From assembly GCF_000376105.1 (NCBI RefSeq), contig NZ_AQWM01000017.1:166-54526 (forward strand): 54,361 nucleotides of DNA, given 5' to 3'. The position numbers and the translations under genes were made by a program. The stretch is from Asticcacaulis benevestitus DSM 16100 = ATCC BAA-896 (GTDB lineage: Bacteria; Pseudomonadota; Alphaproteobacteria; Caulobacterales; Caulobacteraceae). Shown here in pieces: positions 29,014 through 48,419 of the stretch (positions are counted from its first letter, which is position 1; each line of letters starts with the position of its first letter). The notes under the pieces were generated by a model. The model had not been told where the DNA came from, made no database searches, and saw nothing but the letters and a program-made list of their open reading frames with translations.

Positions 29014-30276
29014 ATGTCAAAGTTCAAAGCGTCCATGGTGGCGACGGTTACGATGGTCGCGGCTGCGGGGCTGGCGTCGGGCGCACACGCGACCGATGGC
29101 TACTTCGCTCATGGCATTGGTGCCAAGGCGAAGGGCGCGGGCGGTACCGAAATCGCCCATGCGCAGGATTCACTGGCTATTGCCGCCAATCCGGCCTCAG
29201 CCGTCGACCTGGGGAATCGCCTTGACGCCGGTCTGGAGGTCTTTTCACCCGACCGTTCAGCGGTCATCCATGGCAATGGCATGGCGGCAGATGCAAGGTA
29301 CGACGGCAATGACAGCAAGCTGTTTGCCGTTCCGGAATTTGGTCTCGTGCGGCAGATCAACGGTCGCAGCGCCTGGGGCGTGGCGGTCTATGGTAATGGT
29401 GGCATGAATACTGATTATGCCGTCAACCCCTTTGGCCGCTTCGGCGCCACCCGTTCAGCCGGGGTCAATCTGGAGCAACTGTTCATTTCCCCAACCTATG
29501 CCTACCGGTTGACCGAGCGTCAGAGTGTCGGCGTCTCGCTTGATATCCTCGTGCAGGCGTTTTACGCCAAGGGCCTTTCGCCCTTTGCCAGCGCTTCGCA
29601 GGACCCGGCCAATTTTAGCAATCGCTCCAAGGATACGGTACTCGGAAGTGGCGTGCGCATCGGTTATCTCGCGCATATCACCGATAAGCTGGCTTTTGGC
29701 GCGTCATGGAAGTCGCGCACCAAGGCGGGCGACTTTAAAAAATACTCCGGTCTGTTCGCCGAAGGCGGCAGTTTTGATTCCCCCTCCACATACGGCGTGG
29801 GTCTCAGTTATCAGGCAACGGCCCCGCTCAACCTGGCCTTCGATGTCCGCAAGATTAACTACTCTGAGGTCAAATCTGTTGGTAATCCGCTCTCCCAGCT
29901 CTTCCTGGGCGCCCCGTTTGGCTCTGATAACGGTCCAGGCTTCGGGTGGCGCGACGTGACGACCTACAAGGTGGGGGCAAACTATGCTATTTCACCTCGC
30001 CTGACGGTACGCGGCGGTTATAGTCATTCGGATCAGCCGATCGCCGCCAGCGAAACCTTTCTGAATATACTGGCGCCGGCGACGGTTCAGGATCAATATA
30101 CGACCGGCGCTACCTGGGCGCTGACCTCGGATCTCGAACTGACGGGCTACGTGCTGGTCGCCCCGAAAAAGACGGTCAAGGGCGCCGGTTCTATTCCCGC
30201 GTCGTTTGGCGGTGGCGAGGCGGATATCAGCCTGGCAGAGACCGCCGTCGGCGTCTCCGTAGGTTGGCGCCATTAA
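29014..30276 (+). CDS. FadL/OmpP1-family outer-membrane channel
   Basis: A 420-residue barrel for hydrophobic compounds. A signal peptide (~1-27, ending SGAHA) precedes TDGYFAHGIGAKAKGAGG, which matches the OmpP1/FadL N-terminal hatch, and NPASAVDLGNRLDAGLEVF follows. It ends with an aromatic strand (VSVGWRH). ATG 29014 is preferred because AAGGGG lies a few bases upstream. Twelve bases separate it from a YeeE/YedE pair, an uncommon partner for FadL; this suggests the channel serves a sulfur compound or that the operon joins two uptake functions. Confidence 0.88.
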   Translation: MSKFKASMVATVTMVAAAGLASGAHATDGYFAHGIGAKAKGAGGTEIAHAQDSLAIAANPASAVDLGNRLDAGLEVFSPDRSAVIHGNGMAADARYDGNDSKLFAVPEFGLVRQINGRSAWGVAVYGNGGMNTDYAVNPFGRFGATRSAGVNLEQLFISPTYAYRLTERQSVGVSLDILVQAFYAKGLSPFASASQDPANFSNRSKDTVLGSGVRIGYLAHITDKLAFGASWKSRTKAGDFKKYSGLFAEGGSFDSPSTYGVGLSYQATAPLNLAFDVRKINYSEVKSVGNPLSQLFLGAPFGSDNGPGFGWRDVTTYKVGANYAISPRLTVRGGYSHSDQPIAASETFLNILAPATVQDQYTTGATWALTSDLELTGYVLVAPKKTVKGAGSIPASFGGGEADISLAETAVGVSVGWRH

Positions 30277-30288
30277 GGGAGAGGCCTC

Positions 30289-30711
30289 GTGGCTTTTGAC
30301 ACATCGGCAGCCCTTTATGCGCTGGAGGGCGGCGCACTGATCGGTCTCGCTGCGGGCGGGTTATACCTGACCACCGGTCGTATCGCCGGTATCAGCGGCA
30401 TCTTCGGCGATAGCTTTCTGCGCACACCGCAAGCGTGGCGGTGGCTGTTCGTCGCGGGGCTTGTGCTGGCGGGACTGGGGGCGCGTCTGTTGCGTTATCC
30501 GCTCCCTGAGGCCATCGGCAGTCCGACGGGGCTGCTTGTCATCTCCGGCCTGTTGGTTGGATTTGGCACGCGCCTTGGCAATGGTTGTACGAGCGGACAC
30601 GGTGTGTGTGGCCTGGCGCGATTGTCCGTACGGTCACTTGTGGCTGTGGTGATCTTTATGGCGACGGCAGGTCTGACGGTATGGATCGTACGCCATGGAG
30701 GTGGCGCATGA
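30289..30711 (+). CDS. YeeE/YedE-family permease, N-terminal half
   Basis: A 140-residue membrane protein starting with GTG (GGGAGAG upstream). It has about four hydrophobic segments and the family motif [13 protein letters not shown] with two Cys. In the YeeE/TsuA thiosulfate transporter such Cys residues line the substrate path. In TsuA both halves are in one protein; here they are split into two genes with an ATGA overlap, as in many proteobacterial DUF6691-type pairs. Probable role: import of thiosulfate or a related sulfane-sulfur anion. Confidence 0.85.
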
Positions 30712-31130
30712 AAGCTTTAGCGCCTCTCCTGGCCTTGGTGTTTGGCGGGCTGTTCGGTATCGGCCTGATTGGGTCAGGCATGATCGACACGAACAATGTC
30801 AAGGGCTTCCTTGATATCGCGGGCGAGTGGCGGCCCGCCCTGGCCTTTGTCATGGGTGGCGCCGTGATTGTGGCTCTGCCGCTTTTCTGGTGGACGCGGC
30901 GCCGGACTCGTCCCCTGGTTGGCGACACGCTTGAAGCGCCGCCGGCAAAGCCAGATCTCCGCCTGGGCGCCGGGGCCGCGATCTTTGGTGTTGGCTGGGG
31001 GTTGAGCGGTATATGTCCGGGGCCAGCGATCGTCTGGTTAGGCTTTGATCCTCTCGCCATCCTGCCGTTCATCGGCGCTGTTCTTGTCGGGGCCTTCATC
31101 GCCGACACCCTTTTTAGGCCAAAGGCCTAG
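30708..31130 (+). CDS. YeeE/YedE-family permease, C-terminal half
   Basis: A 140-residue partner of the preceding gene (ATGA overlap). It has hydrophobic segments at ~5-25, ~45-60, ~85-105 and ~115-135. The second family motif [14 protein letters not shown] supplies the conserved Cys of the other half-channel. Together the two polypeptides would rebuild the pseudo-symmetric thiosulfate-type transporter. A central linker ([19 protein letters not shown]) is cytosolic. Confidence 0.85.
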
Positions 31131-31188
31131 ATCGCTTTTTAGTCAAGGCGCGTACGAGGGTGAGGGGGCGCACGGCCTGCCTCTAAAT

Positions 31189-31214
31189 AAAATCTAATTG
31201 GTGTTAATTTAGAT
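31189..31214. promoter_or_regulatory. ATCTAA/TTAGAT inverted repeat before TBDR
   Basis: ATCTAA (31192-31197) and TTAGAT (31209-31214) form an inverted repeat with 11-bp spacing, 140 bp before the TBDR start. The left part reads AAAATCTAATTG, related to words at 21591, 39807 and 45761. Function inferred. Confidence 0.4.
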
Positions 31215-31354
31215 TAGTTTTTCTTGCCGGAGCCGCGATCTTTTCTCGTTATGCGTCTTTCGGCTCGCTTTATATAAAGCGGGAGAGTTGAAGAGAAAGC
31301 GCGCGTGGCCTTTCTCTCATCGCTATGTTTCAAATCTCAGCCTGTGGGGGCATC

Positions 31355-33742
31355 ATGTCCAATTTAAGTAAGAAAGCCGCCTGGTCGGCAGGGGTCAGCC
31401 TGTCCCTTATGGCACTTGTCAGCATGACGTCAGCGAGCGCTCAGACTGAGGCGAGCGTTCCGGCGCCGGCGGACGTACCCGAGAGCGGTGTCACGGTCAT
31501 CGTAACGGGCACGCGCGAAACCGGCCGGAAGGCGCGCGACAGCGCGACGCCCATCGATGTCATCACCGCTGCGGATCTACGCGCCACCGGTCAGACAAAT
31601 CTGTTAGACGCGTTGAAAAACGTACTGCCATCCCTTAACGGACCGGCGGTGGGTTATGATGTCGGCGCCCTGGCCCGCACCTTTCAACTCCGTGGGCTCA
31701 GTCCGGCCCATACGCTTGTTCTGGTCAACGGAAAGCGCCGCCACCTGTCGGCCGGTCTTTATGCCGATTCCGATCCGGCACAGGGGGCCAACGCGGTCGA
31801 TCTCGATCTTATCCCGCTGGCGGCCATAGACCATATTGAAGTTCTGAGAGATGGCGCCGCCGCCCAGTATGGTTCTGACGCCATTGCCGGTGTGATCAAC
31901 ATCATATTGAAGTCTTCCGGCAAAGGTGGAAGTCTCTCCGTTCTTGGGGGAAGCTACTACAAGGGGGACGGAGCCAGCGGGCAGATCGATGTTGAGGCGG
32001 GTGTGAAGCTTGGCCAGGACGGCACGCTAAATGTGAGCGCAGGCTATCGTCATCATGATTTTTCCAACCGGAGTGGCGAGACGGGCGATGTGCAGACCGC
32101 CAAGGTGCAAGGTGATCCTCAATCTGACGTCGCGACGCTTGGCTTCAATCTGGTGAAGCCACTGAATGACGCCGCCACCGTCTATAGTTTTGGAACGGCC
32201 GCCCACCGCAAGGCGACCGCCTGGGAAAATCCGCGTCAGCCGGGCTGGGTCTCTGACGCAACGGACCTGCTTTATCCGAATGGCTTCACCCCGCAGGAAA
32301 AGGTTGATGAAGCGGATTACAGCCTCACCGCGGGCGTGCGTGGCCAGACCGGCAATGCCTGGAACTGGGACCTGAGCGCGACCTACGGTCGCGACGAGGA
32401 AAATCTCCGCAATGTCAAAACGGTCAATCCGGACTTACTCGCTGACACGGGCAATGCCCAAAGCGATTTTTATGTCGGTGCGTTCATTTCGTCAGAGCTG
32501 ACCACCAACCTTGATATCAAGCGGGCGTTCAATGTCGGGCTGGCGGCCCCCCTCAACGTTGCGGTCGGTGTGGAGGCAAGGCACGAAACCTATGAGATCA
32601 AGGCCGGCGAGCCAAATTCTTACTATGGAGGCGGCCCTTCGGCCTTTCCGGGCTTCCGCCCATCGGATGCGGTTAAGGCCGAACGTGACGGTCTGGCCAG
32701 CTATGTTGATCTCTCAACCCTGGTGACCCCGAAATGGGAGCTTGGCCTGGCCGTCCGTGCCGAGCACTATGATGGGGTTGGCGATACGCAAACGGGCAAG
32801 CTTTCGACGCGTTACAATCTGTCGCCAACCTTCGCCCTGCGTGGCACGCTTAGCAGCGGGTTCCATGCGCCAACGCTCGCCCAGCAATATTATTCGGCGA
32901 CAACCGTCACGACCGGCTATGCCTCGATCCAGTTACCGCTCGGCTCGCCAGGAGCAGCCATCCTTGGCGCGCCCGATCTCAAGCCCGAAAACTCCCGATC
33001 CATCAGCGCCGGTTTCGTCGCTGAACCGGTTCGTGGATTACATGTGAGTCTCGATGCCTACACGATTGCGGTGGATGACCGGATTATCGAGTCCGCCTAT
33101 CTTTATGATCCACTTGCGCTGGCGGCGATCGAAGCCAACGGGTCTGTCGTACCCTCGGAGCTCGATCCGGCCAATGTCGCGGCGGTTTTCTTCACGAATG
33201 GTGTGGATACACGGACCGACGGTGTCGACATAACAGCCGACTGGCGCCAGCAACTGGGGGAGTTGGGTGCCATCAAATGGACATTCGCCGGCAGCTACAA
33301 CAAAACGACCATACGGGCGATCCATGACGCGCCGGCGGTGCTTGAAGCGGCAGGCCTTGGTCTTGTTGACGCCGTGCAGCGCTCCAATCTGACGACGGCC
33401 ACGCCCCAGATCAAGGCCTCACTGGCGGGCGTCTGGACCTCCAGGGCCTGGGCGGTGACCTTGCGCAATACCTACTACAGCAAAACAACCCAGGCGCAGG
33501 GCTATGCCGAACCCTACTATAAGATAGCCACAAAGGCGGCGGTCATTACGGATCTTGATCTGGGTTACCGCTTCAACGACGGCTTACGCCTCAATATCGG
33601 TGCCAGTAATCTCTTTAATGTTTACCCGACTAAGATTGCGCCAGAGATTTATCAGAACCTGAACTACGACAAGTATTCTCACGTCTCACCCTATGGCATA
33701 AACGGCGGCACCTATTATGCCCGCCTTACGGCCAGCTTTTAG
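31355..33742 (+). CDS. TonB-dependent receptor
   Basis: A 795-residue outer-membrane receptor. The signal peptide is ~1-30 (ending ASA) and a TonB-box-like VTVIVTGTR follows. The plug has TFQLRGLSPAHTLVLVNGKR, then IDHIEVLRDGAAAQYGSDAI. The barrel ends TYYARLTASF. It is the same subfamily as the receptor at 45861, sharing the VLVNGKRRH and DGAAAQYGSDAI motifs, and differs from the siderophore-type one at 21682. A homocysteine methyltransferase, exported SAM hydrolase and isochorismatase-like hydrolase follow closely, so a methylated sulfonium compound is a plausible ligand (inference). Confidence 0.9.
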   Translation: MSNLSKKAAWSAGVSLSLMALVSMTSASAQTEASVPAPADVPESGVTVIVTGTRETGRKARDSATPIDVITAADLRATGQTNLLDALKNVLPSLNGPAVGYDVGALARTFQLRGLSPAHTLVLVNGKRRHLSAGLYADSDPAQGANAVDLDLIPLAAIDHIEVLRDGAAAQYGSDAIAGVINIILKSSGKGGSLSVLGGSYYKGDGASGQIDVEAGVKLGQDGTLNVSAGYRHHDFSNRSGETGDVQTAKVQGDPQSDVATLGFNLVKPLNDAATVYSFGTAAHRKATAWENPRQPGWVSDATDLLYPNGFTPQEKVDEADYSLTAGVRGQTGNAWNWDLSATYGRDEENLRNVKTVNPDLLADTGNAQSDFYVGAFISSELTTNLDIKRAFNVGLAAPLNVAVGVEARHETYEIKAGEPNSYYGGGPSAFPGFRPSDAVKAERDGLASYVDLSTLVTPKWELGLAVRAEHYDGVGDTQTGKLSTRYNLSPTFALRGTLSSGFHAPTLAQQYYSATTVTTGYASIQLPLGSPGAAILGAPDLKPENSRSISAGFVAEPVRGLHVSLDAYTIAVDDRIIESAYLYDPLALAAIEANGSVVPSELDPANVAAVFFTNGVDTRTDGVDITADWRQQLGELGAIKWTFAGSYNKTTIRAIHDAPAVLEAAGLGLVDAVQRSNLTTATPQIKASLAGVWTSRAWAVTLRNTYYSKTTQAQGYAEPYYKIATKAAVITDLDLGYRFNDGLRLNIGASNLFNVYPTKIAPEIYQNLNYDKYSHVSPYGINGGTYYARLTASF

Positions 33743-33750
33743 GTCATCTG

Positions 33751-34644
33751 ATGGCAATCACTCTCCTTGATGGCGGGACAGGGCGTGAACTCGCGCGGAT
33801 GGGGGCGCCGTTCCGGCAGCCGGAATGGTCAGCGCTCGCCCTGATCGAGGCGCCGGATGCGGTCACCCGTGTTCACGAAGCCTTTGTGCAGGCTGGCGCC
33901 GAGGTCATTTCCACGAACAGTTACGCGGTCGTGCCCTTTCATCTCGGTGAGGCCGTCTTTGCCGAGCGCGGCCATGCTTTGGCTTCCCTGGCCGGACGCC
34001 TGGCACGTGAGGTCGCCAATAGAGCGCCGCATCCTGTTCAGGTGGCCGGCGCCCTGCCACCGATCGGTGGGTCCTATCGCGCTGACCAGTTCAACGCCGA
34101 AACGGCGCGGCCAGTGCTACAGACCCTGGTTGATGCCCTGGCTCCGTATGTCGATCATTGGCAGGCAGAGACCCTGAGCGCCATTGAAGAAGCTGAACTG
34201 GTGCGTGACGTGCTGGGCGAGGACGTCCGGCCCCTCTGGCTATCCTTTACGCTTTATGATGAAGATAGCTTAGGCCCTCCGCGCCTGCGCTCGGGTCAAC
34301 AGGTCGACGATGCGGTCCGGGCGGCGATAAGGCTGAAGGCAACCGCTGTTCTGTTCAATTGCAGTCAGCCCGAAGTTATGGCCGAGGCGGTGACGGTGGC
34401 CCGAACCGTCATTGACAAGGCGGGGTCGGATCTGCACGTGGGCGTCTATGCCAACGCCTTTCCTCCCCAGAGATCCGATGCTGAAGCCAATGCCGGGCTT
34501 GATGACATTCGCTCTGACCTCACAGAAGAAGGCTATACCCGTTTCGCTCGAGCCTGGCAGCGCGCCGGTGCGACCCTGATCGGCGGATGTTGTGGTATTG
34601 GTCCAGAACATATCGGGGCCCTCCACCGGGCCTTCAAACAATAA
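33751..34644 (+). CDS. mmuM: Homocysteine S-methyltransferase
   Basis: Zn-dependent enzyme that methylates homocysteine from S-methylmethionine or SAM to give methionine. N-terminal LLDGGTGRELARMGAP, the substrate segment STNSYAVVPFHLG, ETLSAIEEAE, and the Zn ligands (NCSQ near 210 and GGCCGIGPEHI near the end) are all present. At 297 residues it is close to MmuM/YagD (~310). It starts 8 bp after the TBDR stop. Homocysteine could come from MetY. The methyl donor cannot be told from sequence, but the neighbouring SAM hydrolase argues for sulfonium compounds. Confidence 0.88.
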   Translation: MAITLLDGGTGRELARMGAPFRQPEWSALALIEAPDAVTRVHEAFVQAGAEVISTNSYAVVPFHLGEAVFAERGHALASLAGRLAREVANRAPHPVQVAGALPPIGGSYRADQFNAETARPVLQTLVDALAPYVDHWQAETLSAIEEAELVRDVLGEDVRPLWLSFTLYDEDSLGPPRLRSGQQVDDAVRAAIRLKATAVLFNCSQPEVMAEAVTVARTVIDKAGSDLHVGVYANAFPPQRSDAEANAGLDDIRSDLTEEGYTRFARAWQRAGATLIGGCCGIGPEHIGALHRAFKQ

Positions 34645-34663
34645 TCCTATTCCGGAGAAGAAC

Positions 34664-35617
34664 ATGACCATTTGGAAAACCTGGCTGGTGACCGCCACCT
34701 TGGCCGCTGGCCTGATCGGTCTTTGTCCCGAAGCCTATGCCAAACCCGTCCCTGCGGTCCGTCCCACAGCGCCTTTGGTACTCTATACGGATTTCGGCAA
34801 TCAGGACGGCGCAGTCTCAGAGGTCAAGGGCGTGGCCTATGGCGTATCGCAAAAGCTGCTGATTTCCGACTTAAGCCATCTCAATCCGAGCGACATCTTC
34901 GAAGGCGCCTATCGCCTCTATCAGGTCGCGCCCTACTGGCCGAAGGGGACCGTGTTTGTGACGGTCATTGACCCCGGCGTGGGAACGGCCCGGTTATCGA
35001 TCGTTCTGAAAACCAAGGTCGGCCACTATTTCGTCGCGCCCGACAATGGTTTGGTGACCTTGATTGCCGAGCAGGAAGGGATTGCCGAAGTGCGTGTCAT
35101 CGACGAGGCCACCAACCGCCTGCCGGGTTCGGGCAAATCGCACACATTCTACGGACGCGACGTCTTTGGTTATACCGGCGCACGCCTGGCGGCCGGTGTC
35201 ATCAGCTTCGAGCAGGTCGGGCCGGTTGTGTCGCCGGACAAGTTGGTACGCTTGCCTTACAAAAAAGCCGAATTCGTATCCGATGCGATAGCGGGCGACA
35301 AGATCACGGGTTTGATACCTGTCCTTGATGTTCAGTACGGCAATGTCTGGAGCGATATTTCGAGGGACCTGTTCGATAAGCTGAACATCAAGATCGGTGA
35401 CAAGGTGCGTGTTCGGTTCTTCCATGGCGACCAACTGGTCGATGATCTGACGGCACCTTATCAAAACACCTTTGGCGAAGTGCCAGTCGGTGAGCCGCTC
35501 GTCTATATCAACAGTCTGCTCAACGTCGCGGTTGCGCTTAACCAAGGTAATTACGCCGCCGCACATCACATCGGATCTGGGCGCGACTGGTTTATCGAGG
35601 TCACCAAGGCGAAGTAG
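34664..35617 (+). CDS. Exported SAM hydrolase (DUF62/SAM hydroxide adenosyltransferase)
   Basis: Member of the fluorinase-related DUF62 family, which splits S-adenosylmethionine into adenosine and methionine using water. YTDFGNQDG, DLSHL, VIDPGVG, APDNGLVT and FYGRDVFGYTGARLA follow family order. Unlike most members, it carries a signal peptide: MTIWKTW, a hydrophobic core, and an AYA cleavage site near residue 26. It is therefore predicted periplasmic. GGAGAAG precedes the ATG. A periplasmic enzyme would hydrolyse incoming extracellular SAM without consuming the cell's own pool. It sits between mmuM and an isochorismatase-like gene. Confidence 0.88.
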   Translation: MTIWKTWLVTATLAAGLIGLCPEAYAKPVPAVRPTAPLVLYTDFGNQDGAVSEVKGVAYGVSQKLLISDLSHLNPSDIFEGAYRLYQVAPYWPKGTVFVTVIDPGVGTARLSIVLKTKVGHYFVAPDNGLVTLIAEQEGIAEVRVIDEATNRLPGSGKSHTFYGRDVFGYTGARLAAGVISFEQVGPVVSPDKLVRLPYKKAEFVSDAIAGDKITGLIPVLDVQYGNVWSDISRDLFDKLNIKIGDKVRVRFFHGDQLVDDLTAPYQNTFGEVPVGEPLVYINSLLNVAVALNQGNYAAAHHIGSGRDWFIEVTKAK

Positions 35618-35674
35618 CCTCACCTGAAAGGGGGCTCAATACGGGCCCTCTAGCTTCTACCCCTGGAGGGACGT

Positions 35675-36271
35675 GTGGCTGAGACCATTTTTCATATTGT
35701 TGGCGCCAATCTCACGCCGCCGGCCTTATCTGATTCCGTGATCGTCTTGATTGACGCTCAAAATGAGTATGTATCGGGCCGCCTGGCGCTTGAGGGTATG
35801 ACAGAGGCGGTAGGGGCGGCGGCAGAGCTTTTGCGCCGGGCCCGTGCCGCCGGGGCACCTGTTATTCATATTCAACAACTGTCCGCGCCTGAGCGGCCCC
35901 TGTTTACGCCAGGATCCCCCCTGGCCGACTTTATACCAGACCTGGCGCCTCAACCCGGTGAGATCGTCATTGGAAAACGCAATTCCAGCGCTTTTGGGGG
36001 CACCAATCTGGCCGAGGTGCTGCGCGCCACCGGCCGCAAGGAGCTTATCCTCGCTGGCTTTATGACGCACAATTGCGTCACCGCAACAGCGCGGAGCGCA
36101 GAAGACCACGGACTACGTACAACCATTGTGGCGGCTGCGACAGCCAGCCGCGATCTCCCAGATTCTTTAACAGGGGTGATCGTGCCGGCGAAGGTTAACC
36201 AGGCGGCCGCGCTGGCGGCCCTGGCGGACCGAACCTCTGTCGTGATTGCCGATGCGTCCTGTCTGACCTGA
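35675..36271 (+). CDS. Isochorismatase-like cysteine hydrolase
   Basis: A 198-residue cysteine hydrolase. The catalytic triad is visible as Asp27 (LIDAQNEY), Lys101 (GKRNSSAF) and Cys134 (HNCV). It begins with GTG after GGAGGG. The family includes nicotinamidases, ureido hydrolases and isochorismate lyases, and substrates cannot be predicted from the triad alone. As the last gene of the TBDR-mmuM-SAM hydrolase operon it could process an amide or vinyl-ether linked product, but this is speculative. Confidence 0.85.
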   Translation: MAETIFHIVGANLTPPALSDSVIVLIDAQNEYVSGRLALEGMTEAVGAAAELLRRARAAGAPVIHIQQLSAPERPLFTPGSPLADFIPDLAPQPGEIVIGKRNSSAFGGTNLAEVLRATGRKELILAGFMTHNCVTATARSAEDHGLRTTIVAAATASRDLPDSLTGVIVPAKVNQAAALAALADRTSVVIADASCLT

Positions 36272-36663: not shown

Positions 36664-38058
36664 TTACGCCACCTGACCTTCAAGCGCCTTTGATACCAAC
36701 CTTGCCCCCTGGCCGACGGCAGCATCCTCCTCGCGCCGTTGAACAGTATAGCGATTTTCAGGAACTGGCAGGCCAAGATGACCCCGCAAGGTCTTCTCGG
36801 TGTAATCCTGCCGGAAAAGGCCGCGTGCCTGCAGAATCGGAACAACTTTCTCGCGGAAGGCCGCAAATGACTCTGGCGTCGTCACTCTGAGGATAAAGCC
36901 ATCGGCGGCGCGTTCAGTGAACCAGTGCTCGAGCTGATCCGCAACGGTTTCGGGTGATCCGATAAATCCGGTCTGCCAGACGCCAAAGCGCTGGGCCACC
37001 TGCCTTAGGCTGAGGTTCTCGTCCTTGGCGATCCGGATGATCCGCTCGGCGTGGCCCTTGTAGCTGTTCAGGGTCAGACCGCTGGTATCAGGGAAGGGGC
37101 CATCGAGCGGGTATTGGCGAAAATCGTGGTAATTGAAGGCGCGGCCCACCTGCACCAGGGCCTTTTCGATATCCAACCCCTGGCGGCGTGACTGGGCGAT
37201 CGCGTGGGCGGCTTCATCTGTATCGGCGATGATCGGGTCGATGCCGGGGGTGACGATGATTTCGTCGGGATTGCGACCAAGCGCTGTAGCTCTGGTCTTA
37301 AGATCGGCGTAGTAGGCCTTTGCGTCCTCGATCGTCTCGCCTGTGGTAAAGGTGGCGTCGGCGATCAGCGCGCCAAGGTCGCGGCCGGCATGGCTGTCGC
37401 CGGCCTGAAAGATCACGGGCTGCCCCTGCGGTGAACGCGTCAGCGCCAGCGGCCCGGCGACGGAAAAGAACTCGCCCTTGTGATTGAGTGTATGTTGCTT
37501 CGTCTTGTCGAGAAAAACGCCAGTGTCCTTATCACGCGGAAAGGCATCGTCCTCGTAACTATCCCACAGCCCCTGCACCACGCTGACAAATTCGCCGGCG
37601 CGGGCATACCGCACCGAATGATCAAAATGCTCTTCACGGCCATAGTTGCGCGAGGCGCCTTCAAGGCCCGTCGTGACGACATTCCAGCCGGCTCGTCCCC
37701 CGCTGATGAGGTCCAGTGAACCGAACTGGCGGGCCACATTATAGGGCTCCCAGTAGGAAGTCGTCAGGGTGGCGACAAGGCCAATCTTTTGTGTGGAGAC
37801 CGCGACAGCTGACAAAAGCGTCAGCGGTTCCAGGCGATTGAGGAAGTGGGGCGCTGAGTCGGGCGTGATGTAGGGGCTGTCGACAATAAACACGAAGTCG
37901 AACTTCGCCGCCTCCGCCAGTCGGGCGTTATCGATATACCAGTTGATATTGACGCTGGCGTCGCCGGGAACGTCAGGATGGCGCCAGACGGCTGGTGTCA
38001 TGCCAACGCCTTCCAGGATGGCGCCCAGCTTGATTTGTCTCGTGTTGGATTGTGTCAT
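36664..38058 (-). CDS. FMN-dependent monooxygenase, NtaA/SnaA/DszA family
   Basis: A 464-residue LLM flavin monooxygenase that would need reduced FMN from a separate reductase. The length and landmarks fit the NtaA/SnaA/DszA(SoxA) group rather than SsuD: FVFIVDSPYI, TSYWEPYNVARQFGSLDLIS, GRAGWNVVTTG, RNYGREEH and RSPQGQPVIFQAG. Members oxidise sulfones, nitrilotriacetate or alkyl sulfur compounds. It lies 28 bp after a peroxiredoxin gene and probably forms an operon with it. A DszB-like protein and an FMN reductase are encoded at 52649-54287, which suggests a Dsz-like C-S cleavage route. Confidence 0.88.
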   Translation of the reverse strand: MTQSNTRQIKLGAILEGVGMTPAVWRHPDVPGDASVNINWYIDNARLAEAAKFDFVFIVDSPYITPDSAPHFLNRLEPLTLLSAVAVSTQKIGLVATLTTSYWEPYNVARQFGSLDLISGGRAGWNVVTTGLEGASRNYGREEHFDHSVRYARAGEFVSVVQGLWDSYEDDAFPRDKDTGVFLDKTKQHTLNHKGEFFSVAGPLALTRSPQGQPVIFQAGDSHAGRDLGALIADATFTTGETIEDAKAYYADLKTRATALGRNPDEIIVTPGIDPIIADTDEAAHAIAQSRRQGLDIEKALVQVGRAFNYHDFRQYPLDGPFPDTSGLTLNSYKGHAERIIRIAKDENLSLRQVAQRFGVWQTGFIGSPETVADQLEHWFTERAADGFILRVTTPESFAAFREKVVPILQARGLFRQDYTEKTLRGHLGLPVPENRYTVQRREEDAAVGQGARLVSKALEGQVA

Positions 38059-39864: not shown

Positions 39865-40665
39865 ATGGATGATCCCGCAATGAGTCAAAGCCTGCATCGT
39901 ACCTTAAAGCACCTGAGCCAGGCACACTGGCTGTCCCCGGTCGTGCTGTTGTTGCTGTGGGAGGCCGGCTCGCGCACGGGTCTTATTCCTGAACGCACAT
40001 TGGCCGCGCCGTCGACCGTGCTGGAGACGCTGGTGGGCATGACGACGTCCGGCGAACTCCCCATTAATCTTCTGGTGTCGCTCGGACGCGCCGCGCTTGG
40101 GCTGGCCATCGGTGTCGCCATCGGCGTCGTGCTCGGCCTGACCGCTGGCCTGTCCCGACCGGGCGAGGCGGCTATTGATCCGCTGATGCAGATTAAGCGC
40201 ACCATTCCAGTCGTCGCCCTGACGCCGTTGTTTATCGTCTGGTTCGGCATCGGTGAGACGCCCAAGATCGCCCTGATCGCCTTCGCTACGCTGTTTCCGG
40301 TCTATCTCAATCTCTATAGCGGCATTCGTGGCATCGACGTCAGACTGATCGATGCCGCCCGCAGCTTTGGCCTTAACCGGTGGCAGATTATCGTCGACGT
40401 CGTGTTGCCAGGCGCTTTGCCGGCGCTTTTTACTGGCCTGCGCTACGCTTTGTCCATCTCCATCCTGATGCTGGTGATTGCTGAGCAGATCAACGCCACC
40501 GCCGGCCTTGGCTACCTGATCAACAATGCCCGAGACTATATGCGCACCGACATCATCGTCGTCTGCCTTCTGGTCTATGCGGCGCTTGGTCTGGCGGCCG
40601 ATGCGCTTGTGCGTCTCGTTGAAAATCGCGCCCTGTCCTGGCGTCCCAATTTCATTACCGCCTAG
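39865..40665 (+). CDS. ssuC: Sulfonate ABC transporter permease
   Basis: A 266-residue inner-membrane subunit with six predicted TM helices. The cytoplasmic EAA loop is clear (DAARSFGLNRWQIIVDVVLPGALPALF). It belongs to the SsuC/TauC/NrtB group. It is the first gene of an operon with SsuB and SsuD-like enzymes, so alkanesulfonates or taurine-like compounds are the expected cargo. The substrate-binding protein is encoded separately at 49358. The start may be ATG 39865 or 39880. Confidence 0.9.
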   Translation: MDDPAMSQSLHRTLKHLSQAHWLSPVVLLLLWEAGSRTGLIPERTLAAPSTVLETLVGMTTSGELPINLLVSLGRAALGLAIGVAIGVVLGLTAGLSRPGEAAIDPLMQIKRTIPVVALTPLFIVWFGIGETPKIALIAFATLFPVYLNLYSGIRGIDVRLIDAARSFGLNRWQIIVDVVLPGALPALFTGLRYALSISILMLVIAEQINATAGLGYLINNARDYMRTDIIVVCLLVYAALGLAADALVRLVENRALSWRPNFITA

Positions 40666-40679
40666 TGCCGGAGCCTGTC

Positions 40680-41519
40680 ATGAACGCCATCCTCTCGCAC
40701 AACCGCTTCGGCCTTACAGAGCCGGTCTATCGTTCTGACACTGAAGCCTACGGCACGAAACCGTCCGTCCGTCTGCGCGGCTTCACGCGCCGGTTTGGTG
40801 ACAATGCCATTATCGATGGGCTCGATCTTGACCTCGCGCCAGGTGAATTGGTTTCACTGCTCGGTCGTTCGGGTAGCGGCAAGACGACGCTCCTTCGCAC
40901 GCTGGCCGGGCTTGACGGTACCTCGGGTCAGGACGTCTCCATTCCGGCGGCGCGCGCCGTCGTCTTTCAGGACGCCCGCCTGCTGCCGTGGAAGCGCGTC
41001 TGGGAGAATGTCGCGCTGGGTTTGAAGGGCAAGGATATCCGCAAGCGCGCCGAGCAGGCCCTGCGCGAGGTTGGGCTCGGACACCGTCTGGACGCCTGGC
41101 CCCTGACGCTTTCCGGGGGTGAAGCCCAGCGCACAGCTCTCGCGCGGGCTTTGGTGCGCGATCCGCAATTGTTGCTGATGGACGAGCCTTTTGCAGCCCT
41201 CGACGCCCTGACCCGGCTGCGCGTGCATGAGTTGGTGTTGAAGCTGTGGCGCATCCACAAGCCGACTGTGATGCTGGTTACGCACGATGTCGACGAGGCC
41301 ATCGCGCTCAGCGACCGTATTCTGGTACTCGATAAGGGCCGCATCGTCGCTGAGGAGCGTATCGATACGCCGCGCGGTGAGCGCCTCGCCCTGACGGTTG
41401 CCTTGCGGGAAAAGCTGCTCGGCTGTCTCGGCACCGGCCACATCTCTGAAGATGATGATCTCACCGTCGTCTTTGATGACAAACCCAATATTCCCTTTTC
41501 TCCGTCTGATCCTTTTTAA
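40680..41519 (+). CDS. ssuB: Sulfonate ABC transporter ATPase
   Basis: A 279-residue ABC ATPase. Walker A is GRSGSGKTT, signature LSGGEAQR, Walker B LLLMDEPFAALD, switch His in VTHDVDEA. The Q-loop AVVFQDARLLPWKRVWENV is characteristic of the SsuB/TauB group. ATG 40680 has GGAG seven bases upstream and is preferred over a GTG overlapping the ssuC stop. It pairs with the permease encoded immediately upstream. Confidence 0.93.
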   Translation: MNAILSHNRFGLTEPVYRSDTEAYGTKPSVRLRGFTRRFGDNAIIDGLDLDLAPGELVSLLGRSGSGKTTLLRTLAGLDGTSGQDVSIPAARAVVFQDARLLPWKRVWENVALGLKGKDIRKRAEQALREVGLGHRLDAWPLTLSGGEAQRTALARALVRDPQLLLMDEPFAALDALTRLRVHELVLKLWRIHKPTVMLVTHDVDEAIALSDRILVLDKGRIVAEERIDTPRGERLALTVALREKLLGCLGTGHISEDDDLTVVFDDKPNIPFSPSDPF

Positions 41520-41531
41520 AAGGTACGCTTC

Positions 41532-42653
41532 ATGACCCTTCCCACCACAGATCAGCTCGAAATTCTCGGCCTGATATCAACCCAGTATGCCTCCGAAACC
41601 CACGCCGCATCCGGTCCGGTCATCGATAAGACCTATGTCGAGACTCACGCTCTGGCCCATGAAAATGGTGGCTTCGACCGCGTGCTGATCGGCTATCATT
41701 CCGCCGCCCCCGACGGTGCACAGGTTGCCGCCTATGCCGCGGCGAAAACCACAAGGCTGAAATTCCTGCTGGCGCACCGCCCTGGTTTCATCGCCCCGAC
41801 CCTGGCGGCACGTTCGTTGGCGACTCTGGAGAATTTCGCTGATGGCCGTCTGGCGGTCCACATCATCACGGGTGGTTCTGACGCTGAGCAGGCGCGCGAT
41901 GGCGACTTCCTGACCAAGGACGCGCGTTATGCCCGCTCAGCCGAATATATCGACATCCTGAAGAAGACATGGACGAGCGCAGGCCCCTTCAGCCATGACG
42001 GTGCGCACTATAAAATTGTCGATAATTTTTCGGCGGTGAAGCCCCTGCAACAACCGCATATTCCTGTCTTCTTCGGCGGGGCTTCGCAGGCCGCCATAGA
42101 CGTCGCCGGGCAGTATGCCGACGTCTATGCCCTGTTCGGCGAGACGCTGGAGGGCGTGCGCGAAACGCTCGACAAGGTGCGCGCCAGCGCCCGCCGTCAC
42201 GGCCGCGAAGGCCAGATCAGCTTCTCCTTGTCGCTGCGACCTATCCTGGGACGCACCGAAGACGAAGCGTGGGCGCGCGCCGCCCGCATACTGGAAGACG
42301 CCCGCGCCCTGAAGGAAAAGGATACGCCGACCTTCTTCCGCCGCGCCAAGAACGAATCGGAAGGCACCAGACGCCTGCTGGAAACGGCAGGCGGCGGCAA
42401 GGTGCGCGACAAACGGTTATGGACCGAAATCGCCGAGCTGACGGGCGCGCAAGGTAACTCGACCTCTCTGGTGGGCACACCGGAACAGGTGGTTGAAGCC
42501 TTGCTCGATTATTACGACCTCGGCATTACCAAGTTCCTGTTCCGTGGTTTCGATCCGCTCGAAGATGCCATCGACTACGGACGAAACCTGCTGCCCCTGT
42601 TCCGTCAGGCAGTCGCAGATCGGCTGGGGCTAACCGCCGTGGCGGCGGAATAG
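41532..42653 (+). CDS. LLM flavin monooxygenase, SsuD-like
   Basis: A 373-residue FMNH2-dependent oxygenase related to alkanesulfonate monooxygenase SsuD. It retains FLLAHRPGFIAPTLAARSLATL, VHIITGG, RYARSAEY, PVFFGGASQAA and EDEAW. By alignment from memory, the position of E. coli SsuD Cys54 is Ala (YHSAAPDG) and that of His228 is Pro (SLRPIL). This points to a distinct subgroup with a different substrate. It is followed by a thiol dioxygenase (2-bp gap). Its paralogue at 44501 is clearly related. Confidence 0.88.
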   Translation: MTLPTTDQLEILGLISTQYASETHAASGPVIDKTYVETHALAHENGGFDRVLIGYHSAAPDGAQVAAYAAAKTTRLKFLLAHRPGFIAPTLAARSLATLENFADGRLAVHIITGGSDAEQARDGDFLTKDARYARSAEYIDILKKTWTSAGPFSHDGAHYKIVDNFSAVKPLQQPHIPVFFGGASQAAIDVAGQYADVYALFGETLEGVRETLDKVRASARRHGREGQISFSLSLRPILGRTEDEAWARAARILEDARALKEKDTPTFFRRAKNESEGTRRLLETAGGGKVRDKRLWTEIAELTGAQGNSTSLVGTPEQVVEALLDYYDLGITKFLFRGFDPLEDAIDYGRNLLPLFRQAVADRLGLTAVAAE

Positions 42654-42655
42654 CC

Positions 42656-43261
42656 ATGACGGTGCACACGGCCATAGAGACACCTGCCAATATCGCCCGG
42701 CTACGCGCTTTCGTCAGCGATCTGGCCGATCTGATCGATCAGGGTCATGACGAGGCCGCCATCCTCGCGGGTGGTCGGGTCCTGCTGAAAAACTTGATCG
42801 CCACGGATGACTGGCTACCTGAGGCCTTTGCGCGACCGAGTCCTGAGCGCTACCAGCAATATCTCCTGCACTGTGACTCCGCAGAGCGCTTTTCGGTCGT
42901 CAGCTTCGTGTGGGGCCCCGGGCAATCGACGCCGGTTCACGACCACACGGTATGGGGATTGGTTGGCGTGCTGCGCGGCGCCGAGTTGGTTGAATCCTAT
43001 GTCCGCGAGGAGGGCGCCCTGTTTTGCACCGGCGAGGGCGCGCTCCACGCCGGCGAGGTTGAAGCGGTTAGCCCGTCGATCGGCGACATTCACCGCGTCA
43101 GCAATGGCGCCCAGGGCGTTTCGGTCAGCATCCATGTCTATGGTGCCAATATCGGTGCGGTTAAGCGCGCGACCTATGCTCACGATGGCACACCCAAACC
43201 CTTTATTTCCGGCTACGCAAATAGCCATTTGCCCAATCTATGGGACCGTTCGAGATCATGA
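42656..43261 (+). CDS. Thiol dioxygenase (cysteine dioxygenase type I family)
   Basis: A 201-residue cupin of the cysteine dioxygenase family, oxidising a thiol to a sulfinate. The three Fe ligands are His95 and His97 (PVHDHTVWG) and His146 (GDIHRVSN). Homologues in bacteria prefer Cys, 3-mercaptopropionate or mercaptosuccinate, which cannot be separated here. It begins 2 bp after the SsuD-like gene and overlaps the rhodanese by 4 bp (ATGA), so it is tightly coupled. Its sulfinate product would be a natural feed for sulfinate desulfination or rhodanese chemistry. Confidence 0.88.
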   Translation: MTVHTAIETPANIARLRAFVSDLADLIDQGHDEAAILAGGRVLLKNLIATDDWLPEAFARPSPERYQQYLLHCDSAERFSVVSFVWGPGQSTPVHDHTVWGLVGVLRGAELVESYVREEGALFCTGEGALHAGEVEAVSPSIGDIHRVSNGAQGVSVSIHVYGANIGAVKRATYAHDGTPKPFISGYANSHLPNLWDRSRS

Positions 43262-44484
43262 TCGTCATCACCCCGCAAGCCGTCCGTTCCGCCCTCATCC
43301 GGGGCGAGGAAATCGCCCTGATCGATGTGCGTGAAGAAGCCGAGTTCGCCCTTGGCCATCCTCTGTTCGCCGCGCAGATCCCGCTGCGCCGCATCGCCGC
43401 CGAAGCGCATTGGCGTCTGCCGCGCCTTGATGTCTTGCTCGTGGTTTATGACAATGGCGAAGGTCTCGCCGAGGAGGCCGCCCGTGCCTTTGAGGACCTT
43501 GGCTACGGGCAGGTGAGGGGGCTTAAAGGCGGTCTGCAGGGGTGGCGCGAGGCGGGTTACGAACTGTTCGAGGACGTCAATTCCTATGCCAAGGCGTTTG
43601 GCGAACTGGTCGAGCATCGTCGTCATACGCCGTCCCTGACATCGCCGGAGGTTAAGGCTTTGCTCGATGCCCGCGCCGATGTGGTCATCCTCGATGCCCG
43701 CCGGTTCGATGAATACACCACCATGTCGATCCCCACCGGTATCAGCGTGCCTGGCGCTGAACTGGTGCTGCGCGCGGGGGGGCTGGCGCCTGATCCGCAG
43801 ACCACCATCATCGTTAATTGCGCCGGTCGCACACGCTCGATCATCGGTACGCAGTCCCTGATCAATGCCGGTTTGCCCAATAAGGTCGTGGCGTTGCGTA
43901 ATGGCACCATCGGCTGGACCCTGGCCGGCCAGACGCTCGATCACGGTCAGACACGACAAGCGGAAGGTTCAGTTGATACCGACGCCCTGACCCGCGCGCG
44001 CAATGTCGCCTATCGCGCCGGCGTCAAGCGCCTGACGATCGACGATCTGCACCTGCTCGAACAGGATAGGTCGCGCACGCTCTATCGTTTCGATGTCCGA
44101 CAGAAGGCGGAGTTCGACGCCGGCCATATCGCCGGCTTTAGCCACGTCGCCGGCGGGCAGCTTGTGCAGGAAACCGACCACTACGCCCCGGTGCGCGGCG
44201 CCCGCATCGTCTTGGCCGATAACATTGGCCCGCGCGCCGATATGAGCGCCTCCTGGCTCGCCCAGATGGGCTGGGAGGTTTACGTGCTGGACGGCGGCTT
44301 TGATAGCCACCTGGAAACTGGCCCAGATGGCGCACCGCTCCCCCGTGGTCCGGAAGGCCGTTACCGCCGCCCCTATGAGGGCACGCAAAACAAGGCGGCC
44401 GCCATGCAGGCCTATCTCGACTGGGAATACGGGCTGGTCGATCAACTGGTGCGCGACGCCACACACGGTTTTTACGTCATTTAA
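43258..44484 (+). CDS. Triple-domain rhodanese (sulfurtransferase)
   Basis: A 408-residue protein with three tandem rhodanese-type domains at ~1-105, ~125-230 and ~270-385. Only the middle one has the catalytic loop Cys (Cys188, NCAGRTRSIIG). The first has Asp (YDNGEG) and the third also Asp (ADNIGPRAD) at the loop. It should therefore have one active sulfur-transfer site flanked by non-catalytic domains, as in some sulfite- or thiol-linked rhodaneses. It starts inside the thiol dioxygenase end, and an SsuD-like enzyme follows after 16 bp. Handling of persulfide/sulfinate pairs is inferred. Confidence 0.88.
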   Translation: MIVITPQAVRSALIRGEEIALIDVREEAEFALGHPLFAAQIPLRRIAAEAHWRLPRLDVLLVVYDNGEGLAEEAARAFEDLGYGQVRGLKGGLQGWREAGYELFEDVNSYAKAFGELVEHRRHTPSLTSPEVKALLDARADVVILDARRFDEYTTMSIPTGISVPGAELVLRAGGLAPDPQTTIIVNCAGRTRSIIGTQSLINAGLPNKVVALRNGTIGWTLAGQTLDHGQTRQAEGSVDTDALTRARNVAYRAGVKRLTIDDLHLLEQDRSRTLYRFDVRQKAEFDAGHIAGFSHVAGGQLVQETDHYAPVRGARIVLADNIGPRADMSASWLAQMGWEVYVLDGGFDSHLETGPDGAPLPRGPEGRYRRPYEGTQNKAAAMQAYLDWEYGLVDQLVRDATHGFYVI

Positions 44485-44500
44485 TCAAGGAGATGTCATC

Positions 44501-45595
44501 ATGAGTGTCAAATTTATCGGCTATATCGGTTTCAACAATGCCTCGGAAACCAGCGGTCTTTTGACCGGCGCCAATCTTGTACTGGACCGCAACTATGTCG
44601 ATGCGGCGGCACGGGCGCAGGAAGCTGGCGGCTTCGATCGTGTCCTGATCCCGTTCGGCTCCAACTCACCGGAAAGCCAGATTGTGGCGGCCCATGCGGC
44701 GGCCATCACCACCAAGCTCGGCTTCCTGGTCGCGCACCGTCCGGGTTTTACCCAGCCGACCCTGGCCGCCCGCCAACTGGCGACGCTTGACGGCTTGAGC
44801 AATGGACGAGTTGCCGTCCACATCATCACCGGCGGCGCCGATGAGGAAATGGCGCGCGATGGTGACCATACGGTCAAACCGCAGCGCTATGCCCGCACCG
44901 ATGAATATCTCGATGTTTTGAAGCAGGAATGGACGGCGCTGAAACCGTTCGACCACGACGGCAGGTTCTACAACGTAAAGGGCGGCTTTGCTGCCATCAA
45001 GCCGAAGAACGTGCCGGTCTTCTTCGGCGGCTCTTCTGAAGAAGCGATCGAGGTGGCCGGCAAGCACGCTGACGTCTACGCCACCTGGGGTGAAACCCTG
45101 GAGCAAACGCGCGAAATCATCGGCCGCGTTCGTAATTCGGCGGCCAAGCACGGCCGCAGCGGCCTCGGCTTCTCGCTGTCCTTGCGTCCCGTCATCGCCG
45201 ATACGGAGGAAGCCGCCTGGCGCAAGGCCGATGATATCGTCGAACAGGTCAAGGAGGCGCGTCTGGCCGCCGGCCTGCCGATCAGCGGGCACAATCCGGC
45301 CAATGTCGGCGCTAAGCGCCTTCTGGAGACCGCGGCGGCCAATCGCCGTGACGGACGCCTGTGGACGGGCGTTGCCGCGCTCACCGGTGCGCAAGGCAAT
45401 TCGACCGGCCTGGTCGGCACGCCGGAGCAGGTATCTGACGCCTTGCTCGACTATTATGAACTGGGCGTTGATCACTTCCTCATCCGCGGGTTCGACCCCT
45501 TGGCCGACGCCATCGACTATGGCCGCGAACTCCTCCCTCTGACGCGTGAAAAGGTGGCTCGCCGCCTTGAACGGGGCACGGCGCTCGCCGGCTGA
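44501..45595 (+). CDS. LLM flavin monooxygenase, SsuD-like (paralogue)
   Basis: A 364-residue FMNH2-dependent oxygenase. It shares GFDRVLI, AHRPGF, VHIITGG, VFFGGSSEEA, FSLSLRP and NSTGLVGTPEQV with the paralogue at 41532. The SsuD Cys54 position is Asn or Ser (FGSNSPES). ATG 44501 is strongly supported by AAGGAG. It closes the operon, and a strong terminator follows at 45621. It probably acts on a different sulfonate or sulfone from its sister. Confidence 0.88.
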   Translation: MSVKFIGYIGFNNASETSGLLTGANLVLDRNYVDAAARAQEAGGFDRVLIPFGSNSPESQIVAAHAAAITTKLGFLVAHRPGFTQPTLAARQLATLDGLSNGRVAVHIITGGADEEMARDGDHTVKPQRYARTDEYLDVLKQEWTALKPFDHDGRFYNVKGGFAAIKPKNVPVFFGGSSEEAIEVAGKHADVYATWGETLEQTREIIGRVRNSAAKHGRSGLGFSLSLRPVIADTEEAAWRKADDIVEQVKEARLAAGLPISGHNPANVGAKRLLETAAANRRDGRLWTGVAALTGAQGNSTGLVGTPEQVSDALLDYYELGVDHFLIRGFDPLADAIDYGRELLPLTREKVARRLERGTALAG

Positions 45596-45620
45596 TCACG
45601 CCTTTAATCGCCGGATACCG

Positions 45621-45656
45621 AACCTCCGTTCTGCGCTCGCAGGACGGAGGTTTTTC
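45621..45656 (+). terminator. Intrinsic terminator after the sulfonate operon
   Basis: AACCTCCGT and ACGGAGGTT form a 9-bp stem extended by CTGC/GCAG with one mismatch, capped by GCTC and followed by TTTTTC. Placed 25 bp after the stop of the last SsuD-like gene. Confidence 0.9.
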
Positions 45657-45759
45657 TTTATGCGGCAGGGTATTGCGGCCCGGCTGATCTCTACCGTTAG
45701 TTTTGCTGAACCTATTAGCAATTGTCATAGACACAATGTGTCAATTCATTTGCGACCCA

Positions 45760-45779
45760 CAATTAAATCCTCTTAATTG
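45760..45779. promoter_or_regulatory. CAATTAA/TTAATTG palindrome before TBDR
   Basis: Perfect 7-bp arms around ATCCTC, 82 bp before the TBDR start. The left arm overlaps the recurring AAATC word. Operator role inferred. Confidence 0.45.
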
Positions 45780-48389: not shown

Positions 48390-48419
48390 TCTCAACCCCT
48401 GCATAAAAAGGAAACGACT

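What the first reader, a model, noticed from the sequence alone, without database searches (positions are those of the whole stretch)
31189..36271. Candidate extracellular SAM / S-methylmethionine scavenging operon
Sequence shows a TBDR, homocysteine S-methyltransferase, a DUF62 SAM hydrolase with a clear signal peptide, and an isochorismatase-like hydrolase in one tight plus-strand run. DUF62 enzymes cleave SAM to adenosine and methionine, and MmuM uses sulfonium methyl donors. An exported SAM hydrolase next to an outer-membrane receptor implies capture of sulfonium compounds from outside, with methionine made in the periplasm and by MmuM in the cytoplasm. I know of no described TonB-linked SAM-salvage system.
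Basis: partly seen in the sequence, partly recalled or inferred. Interest (0 to 1): 0.85.

Follow-up and report, generated by a model that had tools for sequence, protein, structure and literature searches.

The report
Exported SAM-hydrolase operon for sulfur scavenging
A bacterium carries a four-gene unit that pairs an outer-membrane gate with an exported enzyme of the family that splits S-adenosylmethionine and a methionine-making enzyme, probably to harvest methionine sulfur from outside the cell; relatives of the exported enzyme are widespread and give a clue to an enzyme family whose natural job is unknown.

Summary
Window 31355-36271 (+) encodes a TonB-dependent receptor, a homocysteine S-methyltransferase (HMT), a DUF62/SAM_HAT protein with a type-I signal peptide, and an isochorismatase-fold hydrolase, 8, 19 and 57 bases apart, among other sulfur genes. 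New: this DUF62 falls on a branch separate from ordinary proteobacterial DUF62. Bacillota members of that branch lie directly behind T-box leaders in 7 of 25 loci scanned; all seven show AUG at the specifier, so induction by methionine starvation is inferred. Many leaderless members sit beside an ECF transporter; Gram-negative members are mostly exported; 2374 of 5426 E. coli genomes carry one. Methionine salvage is therefore a likely role. Against the full model: the receptor's ligand is unknown; no other neighbourhood examined held receptor, HMT and DUF62 together; four of the seven T-box genes have no ECF gene beside them; the unit has no inner-membrane sulfonium permease; this copy has Tyr in place of the triad His; hydrolase and HMT should be in different compartments. 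TonB-linked SAM salvage is plausible but unproven.

The parts
31113..31131 (+). terminator-like stem-loop with T-run after the DUF6691 gene; may separate the upstream unit from the operon
   Evidence: 18 such sites found vs 8.8 expected in shuffles, so individually weak
31355..33742 (+). TonB-dependent receptor (signal peptide by eye, plug, beta-barrel, C-terminal Phe); alternative start 31325; ligand unknown
   Evidence: Pfam; no NCBIfam cut-off reached; N- and C-termini
33751..34644 (+). homocysteine S-methyltransferase family (PF02574), no signal peptide, Cys204/280/281 match the Zn-site pattern (pattern recalled); methyl donor unknown
34664..35617 (+). exported DUF62 / SAM_HAT protein (putative SAM hydrolase)
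   Evidence: Pfam; PDB relatives; AlphaFold2 model mean pLDDT 84.9 matching 2zbu, ClA1, SalL and PH0463 folds
34664..34741 (+). signal peptide of the DUF62 protein, 26 residues, likely cleavage after AYA
   Evidence: sequence, read by eye; leader-like N-termini in 109 of 120 listed homologs by a crude script rule
34970..34972 (+). codon of Asp103, triad Asp of hydrolytic DUF62 (kept)
   Evidence: triad described in PMC10491745 (one passage); which residue is which rests on the alignment and recall
34991..34993 (+). codon of Arg110, triad Arg (kept)
35150..35152 (+). codon of Tyr163, at the place of the triad His (changed)
35675..36271 (+). isochorismatase-fold hydrolase; Asp27, Lys101 and Cys134 fit the family's catalytic triad (triad recalled); role unknown
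29014..31130 (+). context: FadL/TodX-like outer-membrane protein, Sulf_transp (YeeE-like) and DUF6691 genes
36664..38058 (-). context: NtaA/DmoA-family FMN monooxygenase (508.8 bits vs cut-off 279.7), convergent
39865..54287 (+). context: ABC transporter parts (sulfonate type by context), two luciferase-like monooxygenases, CDO-like protein (just under the Pfam cut-off), rhodanese, another TBDR, TauD, NMT1-type binding protein, Rrf2 regulator, FMN reductase

Best explanation
This is a sulfur/methionine-scavenging operon. The receptor takes an organosulfur (probably sulfonium) compound across the outer membrane (inferred). The exported DUF62 enzyme cleaves SAM, or a close sulfonium relative, to methionine and adenosine in the periplasm (family chemistry is known, export is predicted, activity of this copy is untested). 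Methionine and adenosine then enter through general importers; the genome holds a MetQ-family binding protein and a NupC-family transporter elsewhere. In parallel, the cytosolic methyltransferase turns homocysteine into methionine with a methyl donor such as S-methylmethionine or SAM (inferred). The isochorismatase-fold enzyme has no assigned step.
For: Gene content and spacing. DUF62 fold and family; Asp and Arg of the triad invariant in the 17 aligned rows. Same-branch Bacillota DUF62 genes lie directly behind T-box leaders in 7 of 25 scanned loci, and all seven show AUG at the specifier (GAACAATGGCC or GAACAATGGAC), the sign of methionine-starvation control. Leaderless members: 19 of 33 have an ECF S or T gene within 1.5 kb, 0 of 33 a TBDR. 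Leader-bearing members: 8 of 44 have a TBDR within 1.5 kb (6 on the same strand just upstream, three of them one lineage; 2 divergent), 3 of 44 an ECF gene, these three probably mis-extended starts. The window DUF62 lies on that branch (77 of 104 rows, SH-aLRT 100). MetH-like genes next to DUF62: L032 of the window's branch, and L118 and L119 (one further, L114, by profile only) of the ordinary branch, from one bacterial family. Sulfur genes on both sides. Own genome has PF03180 (MetQ type) and PF07662 (NupC type) proteins. mmuM rises under sulfur limitation in Ca. Pelagibacter ubique (PMC5069961, passages).
Against: Triad His replaced by Tyr in this copy; PMC10491745 (one passage) calls the triad strictly conserved. 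StDUF62 prefers (R,S)-SAM and its authors doubt that hydrolysis is its physiological role (PMC12120602, parts 1-2 of 3 read). The trio TBDR+HMT+DUF62 was not seen in any other neighbourhood examined; none of the nine other family genomes with a window-type HMT has DUF62. Of nine genomes searched that carry a relative of this DUF62, one (Aeromonas) has a window-type HMT (57%), on another contig. Four of the seven T-box-led DUF62 genes (L040, L050, L067, L068) have no ECF gene beside them but unrelated genes such as CtaG or a two-component system; the ECF S component is named a riboflavin one by NCBIfam. TBDR relatives (41-47%) mostly lack sulfonium-type neighbours; flavin amine oxidases occur in 3 of 5 loci scanned with Pfam. 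Most exported DUF62 genes have no TBDR near (36 of 44), and most of their neighbours that were scanned were unrelated. No regulatory RNA in the window, none directly before DUF62 in 30 further loci, 29 of them leader-bearing. An E. coli exported relative has no sulfur neighbours.
Confidence: 0.5

Rival explanations
1. Sulfur island with unrelated cargo: the receptor imports some other sulfur compound (sulfonate, sulfate ester, thioether), and HMT and the exported DUF62 were added to a sulfur-starvation regulon without being one pathway. DUF62 still salvages SAM that leaks from dying cells and reaches the periplasm through porins.
For: The receptor has no identified ligand; its relatives mostly have other neighbours, though in L179 a homolog of the window's luciferase-like monooxygenase (2e-136) and a GST lie about 5-6 kb away, which fits a general sulfur role; HMT and DUF62 occur apart in the loci examined; sulfonate-type genes flank the unit; 36 of 44 leader-bearing DUF62 loci have no TBDR within 1.5 kb.
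Against: 8- and 19-base gaps suggest one transcript for the three genes; a TBDR directly upstream of DUF62 recurs in L018, L019, L048, L058, L059 and L062.
Confidence: 0.3
2. Disposal of damaged SAM: both enzyme families can act on (R,S)-SAM (DUF62 by hydrolysis; homocysteine methyltransferases by methyl transfer), so the unit repairs or removes the epimer.
For: StDUF62 prefers (R,S)-SAM (PMC12120602); yeast Mht1/Sam4 act on (R,S)-SAM (titles seen in the reference list of PMC6302742).
Against: The epimer forms in the cytosol, but this DUF62 is exported; relatives are behind methionine-type T-box leaders or beside an importer, which fits supply rather than repair; a TBDR has no place in repair.
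Confidence: 0.08
3. The window's DUF62 has altered or lost chemistry because of His-to-Tyr, and acts on another nucleoside-sulfonium or halide, or is only a binding protein.
For: Tyr163 replaces the triad His; chlorinase SalL also has Tyr there (alignment); of 120 listed proteins, own included, 113 have His, 5 Tyr, 1 Phe, 1 no match.
Against: Asp103 and Arg110, which SalL lacks, are kept; Tyr arose on several branches (at least 6 changes on a quick tree), including L066, a Bacillaceae copy behind a Met-type T-box and beside an ECF S gene, so Tyr seems compatible with the branch's role.
Confidence: 0.12

Closest known systems
DUF62 / SAM hydroxide adenosyltransferases (PH0463, MJ1651, StDUF62; Pfam SAM_HAT_N + SAM_HAT_C)
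   Same: Both domains above Pfam cut-off; same fold; Asp and Arg of the triad
   Different: Signal peptide; His replaced by Tyr; far below the (R)-SAM hydrolase equivalog cut-offs (137.7 vs 350 and 99.5 vs 470 bits); separate branch from ordinary proteobacterial DUF62 (the named enzymes were not in that tree)
SalL/FlA adenosyl halogenases
   Same: Same fold (Foldseek TMt 0.81-0.91); Tyr at the His position as in SalL
   Different: Keeps Asp103 and Arg110, which SalL lacks; fluorinase cut-off not reached (103.5 vs 400); exported
mmuPM S-methylmethionine salvage (E. coli type)
   Same: A homocysteine S-methyltransferase family enzyme
   Different: No MmuP-like permease in the unit; HMT below the MmuM equivalog cut-off; accompanied by TBDR and exported DUF62
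Putative ECF transporter mtsABC (MetJ-regulated in Vibrionales, PMC4239095 passages) and the DUF62-ECF loci found here
   Same: Import linked to methionine control; the loci found here have DUF62 of the same branch
   Different: The window has a TBDR and a periplasmic enzyme in place of an ECF importer and a cytosolic enzyme. That the DUF62-linked S component is an mts-type one is recalled, not tested; NCBIfam names it a riboflavin S component
Sulfonate/sulfate-ester starvation clusters (ssu/tau/sfn type)
   Same: Flanking genes: ABC parts, luciferase-like monooxygenases, TauD, FMN reductase
   Different: Those clusters do not, to my knowledge (recalled), include an exported SAM hydrolase

Membership tests
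DUF62 / SAM hydrolase | SAM_HAT_N and SAM_HAT_C domains | tested here: met
   153.5 and 67.6 bits against cut-offs 26.3 and 25.5
DUF62 / SAM hydrolase | Asp-Arg-His water-activating triad | tested here: not met
   Asp103 and Arg110 kept, His replaced by Tyr163
[quoted passage not shown]
   needs assay
(R)-SAM hydrolase equivalogs NF058624, NF053629 | score over curated cut-off | tested here: not met
   137.7 vs 350; 99.5 vs 470
fluorinase TIGR04507 | score over curated cut-off | tested here: not met
   103.5 vs 400
homocysteine S-methyltransferase family PF02574 | domain and Cys/CysCys metal-site pattern | tested here: met
   195.6 bits; C204, C280, C281; that these bind Zn is recalled
MmuM (PRK09485) | score over equivalog cut-off | tested here: not met
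   111.7 vs 215
TonB-dependent receptor | plug and barrel domains, signal peptide, aromatic C-terminus | tested here: met
   signal peptide read by eye
TonB-dependent receptor | TonB box | not tested
   -
TonB-linked SAM salvage system (proposed) | same TBDR+HMT+DUF62 trio in independent genomes | tested here: not met
   not seen in 77 parsed of 80 loci; none of nine other family genomes with window-type HMT has DUF62. HMT and DUF62 homologs share two longest-contig lengths (54575; 98343), a hint of linkage that could not be read
TonB-linked SAM salvage system (proposed) | receptor binds SAM or S-methylmethionine | not testable with these tools
   -

The most novel reading that the evidence does not exclude
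A TonB-coupled SAM scavenging system: extracellular SAM (or S-methylmethionine) is actively taken through the outer membrane and cut in the periplasm by an exported DUF62 hydrolase for its methionine sulfur, as the Gram-negative counterpart of a methionine-controlled ECF+DUF62 importer-hydrolase in Bacillota. This would be a physiological role for a large branch of DUF62 enzymes.
Probability: 0.3. Interest if true: 0.8.

Novelty: new variant of a known kind. Interest (0 to 1): 0.6.

Why it matters
The natural role of DUF62 SAM hydrolases is an open question: the authors of PMC12120602 (parts 1-2 of 3 read) argue that at least some have an unknown physiological function. The pattern found here (exported in Gram-negatives; leaderless, beside an ECF importer or behind methionine-type T-box leaders in Bacillota; part of a sulfur-scavenging operon in this window) points to salvage of external SAM for methionine. 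It is directly testable, also because a relative is carried by 2374 of 5426 complete E. coli genomes; the one protein read has a signal peptide by eye and the full triad.

Tried and rejected
Regulatory RNA in the window: none at E up to 1. Regulatory RNA directly before DUF62 in 30 further loci (29 leader-bearing, plus the truncated L080): none at the gathering score; the SAM riboswitch in L032 lies between DUF62 and a MetH-like gene and belongs to the latter. T-boxes in L052 are not next to DUF62. FMN riboswitches in L078 and L088 lie about 3-4 kb from DUF62.

Conserved TBDR+HMT pair in Caulobacteraceae-level genomes: not found. In eight of the nine window-type HMT loci at least one neighbour was scanned with Pfam: two-component system and glycogen genes, Nudix, Vps10, chorismate-binding, acyl-CoA dehydrogenase, beta-lactamase-fold protein, MFS, YCII, DUF1993. 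In L134 a TBDR lies about 3.5 kb from the HMT with two opposite-strand genes between. The ninth, L132, is a 4.2-kb contig whose HMT my gene caller missed (found); its neighbours were not scanned. Conserved sulfur neighbourhood of the TBDR: not found in the ten loci, five of them scanned with Pfam.

Distribution: DUF62 in 10 of 199 family-level genomes, own included, the nine others 35-40% identical; 1 of 25 in the genus; isochorismatase-like gene 1 of 199 at E 1e-40. Whether the cassette was acquired or is an old one often lost is not resolved.

DUF62 as halogenase: considered, disfavoured because Asp103 and Arg110 are kept. Phage-collection hits (8 records) were not pursued. My gene caller mis-framed high-GC loci (one search also crashed) and was replaced. 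Leader calls are a crude hydrophobicity rule on ORFs that may start too far upstream; L038, L056, L079 and L084 are probably false leaders. Three of 80 loci were not parsed. From the tree 14 rows were dropped for lacking the anchoring motif or for length, among them L141 (54%) and all eight family-level homologs offered (35-40%), so their place is unknown; support is SH-aLRT from a short search and the program warned of long branches. The tree is a quick one and kept the His/Tyr column.

Not done: a signal-peptide program, docking, TonB-box analysis, reading the metagenome contigs that seem to hold both HMT and DUF62.
Full report
What is there. Window 31355-36271 (+) holds four genes: a TonB-dependent receptor, a homocysteine S-methyltransferase (PF02574), a DUF62/SAM_HAT protein and an isochorismatase-fold hydrolase (Pfam), 8, 19 and 57 bases apart. 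A terminator-like stem at 31113-31131 follows the preceding gene (weak evidence). The DUF62 starts MTIWKTWLVTATLAAGLIGLCPEAYA, a type-I signal peptide by eye; 109 of the 120 listed homologs, own included, have a hydrophobic leader by a crude script rule. The HMT has no leader and keeps Cys204/280/281. It is not an MmuM equivalog (111.7 vs 215 bits).

Surroundings. Upstream are a LysR regulator, a FadL-like outer-membrane protein, and Sulf_transp and DUF6691 genes; a Cys/Met-metabolism PLP enzyme lies at 18403-19674. Downstream come an NtaA/DmoA-type monooxygenase, ABC transporter parts, luciferase-like monooxygenases, rhodanese, another TBDR, TauD, an NMT1-type binding protein, an Rrf2 regulator and an FMN reductase. 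This looks like a sulfur-acquisition island.

The enzyme. Both SAM_HAT domains pass their cut-offs. The AlphaFold2 model (mean pLDDT 84.9; the five models vary from 52.5 to 84.9) matches a Thermotoga DUF62, chlorinases and PH0463. The review PMC10491745 (one passage) describes a His-Arg-Asp triad as the mark of hydrolytic DUF62. Here Asp103 and Arg110 are kept and His is Tyr163. Of 120 listed proteins, own included, 113 have His, 5 Tyr, 1 Phe and 1 gave no match. On a quick tree of 197 rows the His/Tyr switch needs at least 6 changes; one Tyr copy, L066, sits behind a methionine-type T-box and beside an ECF S gene. So Tyr does not look like simple decay, but activity is not shown.

The branch and its regulation. 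In a tree of 104 rows the window falls among 77 rows split from 27 ordinary proteobacterial DUF62 rows (SH-aLRT 100); all 27 ECF-linked rows lie in one 36-row branch (SH-aLRT 100) inside it (14 rows dropped). Of 77 parsed loci, 44 have a leader by the crude rule and 33 do not; 19 of the 33 leaderless ones have an ECF S or T gene within 1.5 kb, against 3 of the 44 (probably mis-extended starts). A TBDR lies within 1.5 kb in 8 of 44 leader-bearing and 0 of 33 leaderless loci. Rfam scans of 25 loci, mostly Bacillota, found T-box leaders directly before DUF62 in seven (L040, L050, L053, L056, L066, L067, L068). In all seven the specifier position reads AUG, the methionine codon; this is inference from sequence. 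Three of the seven (L053, L056, L066) have an ECF S gene beside DUF62; the other four do not and have unrelated next genes. Thirty further loci, 29 of them leader-bearing, gave no regulatory RNA directly before DUF62. MetH-like genes adjoin DUF62 in L032 of this branch and in L118 and L119 of the ordinary branch, which belong to one bacterial family; L114 of that family also has a profile match. These are further ties to methionine metabolism.

Spread. In family-level sampling 10 of 199 genomes have any DUF62, own included, the others at 35-40% identity; in the genus 1 of 25; in the phylum sample 41 of 398, of which two besides the own genome reach 54-61% and the rest 42% or less. Window-type HMT (56-75%) occurs in nine other genomes of the family, none with DUF62. 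Of nine genomes searched that carry a relative of this DUF62, one (Aeromonas salmonicida) has a window-type HMT (57%), on another contig. The trio is thus rare. HMT and DUF62 homologs share two longest-contig lengths (54575 and 98343), a hint of linkage that I could not read. A DUF62 56% identical to the window's, placed by the quick tree next to an exported Aeromonas copy, is in 2374 of 5426 E. coli genomes; in the one inspected it has a signal peptide by eye and the full triad and lies between yigE and uvrD.

How it probably works. The branch's role is most likely methionine supply from external SAM or a similar sulfonium. In Bacillota the substrate would be imported, where ECF genes are present through them, and cut inside; in Gram-negatives the enzyme is exported and the cut is made in the periplasm. 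The products can enter through general importers; the own genome has a MetQ-family protein and a NupC-family transporter. The HMT then works in parallel in the cytosol. In Ca. Pelagibacter ubique mmuM rises under sulfur limitation (PMC5069961, passages). Whether the receptor carries SAM is unknown: of ten loci with relatives (41-47%), five were scanned with Pfam, and three have flavin amine oxidases beside the receptor; one of these (L179) also has a homolog of the window's luciferase-like monooxygenase and a GST about 5-6 kb away.

Literature. Among the titles and abstract openings listed (6 to 25 papers a search) I saw no TonB-linked SAM salvage system and no described exported DUF62; only open-licence papers are held and the lists are capped, so this is no proof of absence. 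PMC12120602 (parts 1-2 of 3 read) reports that StDUF62 prefers (R,S)-SAM and doubts that this is its physiological function. PMC4239095 (passages) lists a putative ECF transporter mtsABC in the MetJ regulon of Vibrionales. [quoted passage not shown] PMC6302742 was seen in passages only.

Verdict. Observation confirmed; interpretation partly supported. The exported, methionine-linked DUF62 branch is the interesting part; the TonB link in this one genome is a good hypothesis, not a finding.

Noticed in passing
L198:7929-8831 (E. coli, between yigE and uvrD): A relative of the window DUF62 is present in 2374 of 5426 complete E. coli genomes; the one inspected has a signal peptide by eye, the full Asp-Arg-His triad and no sulfur neighbours.
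   Followed up: partly
L040, L050, L053, L056, L066, L067, L068, upstream of DUF62: T-box leaders with AUG at the specifier directly before DUF62 genes in Bacillota; four of the seven have no ECF gene next to them.
   Followed up: yes
L036, L038, L051, L060, L072, L081, L082, L084, L086, L087, L091: Two or three DUF62 paralogs close together, mostly with ECF genes; several of the extra copies lack the TF[HY]GRD motif.
   Followed up: no
L118, L119 (and L114 by profile): Ordinary, leaderless DUF62 genes next to a MetH-like gene (S-methyl_trans + Pterin_bind), divergent, in one proteobacterial family.
   Followed up: partly
L032:7926-9244: Exported DUF62 gene followed by a SAM riboswitch and a MetH-like gene in a Bacteroidales MAG.
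   Followed up: partly
L172, L178, L179: Relatives of the window TBDR sit beside flavin amine oxidases.
   Followed up: partly
window 30289-31130: Two short genes in tandem (Sulf_transp, DUF6691) that look like a split YeeE/YedE-type transporter behind a FadL-like gene.
   Followed up: no
window 42656-43261: Cysteine-dioxygenase-like protein just below the Pfam cut-off inside the sulfur island.
   Followed up: no
PQ159899.1 and OR records of the phage collection: DUF62 hits of 43-52% in eight records labelled phage of Helicobacter, Listeria and Staphylococcus; may be host DNA in the records.
   Followed up: no
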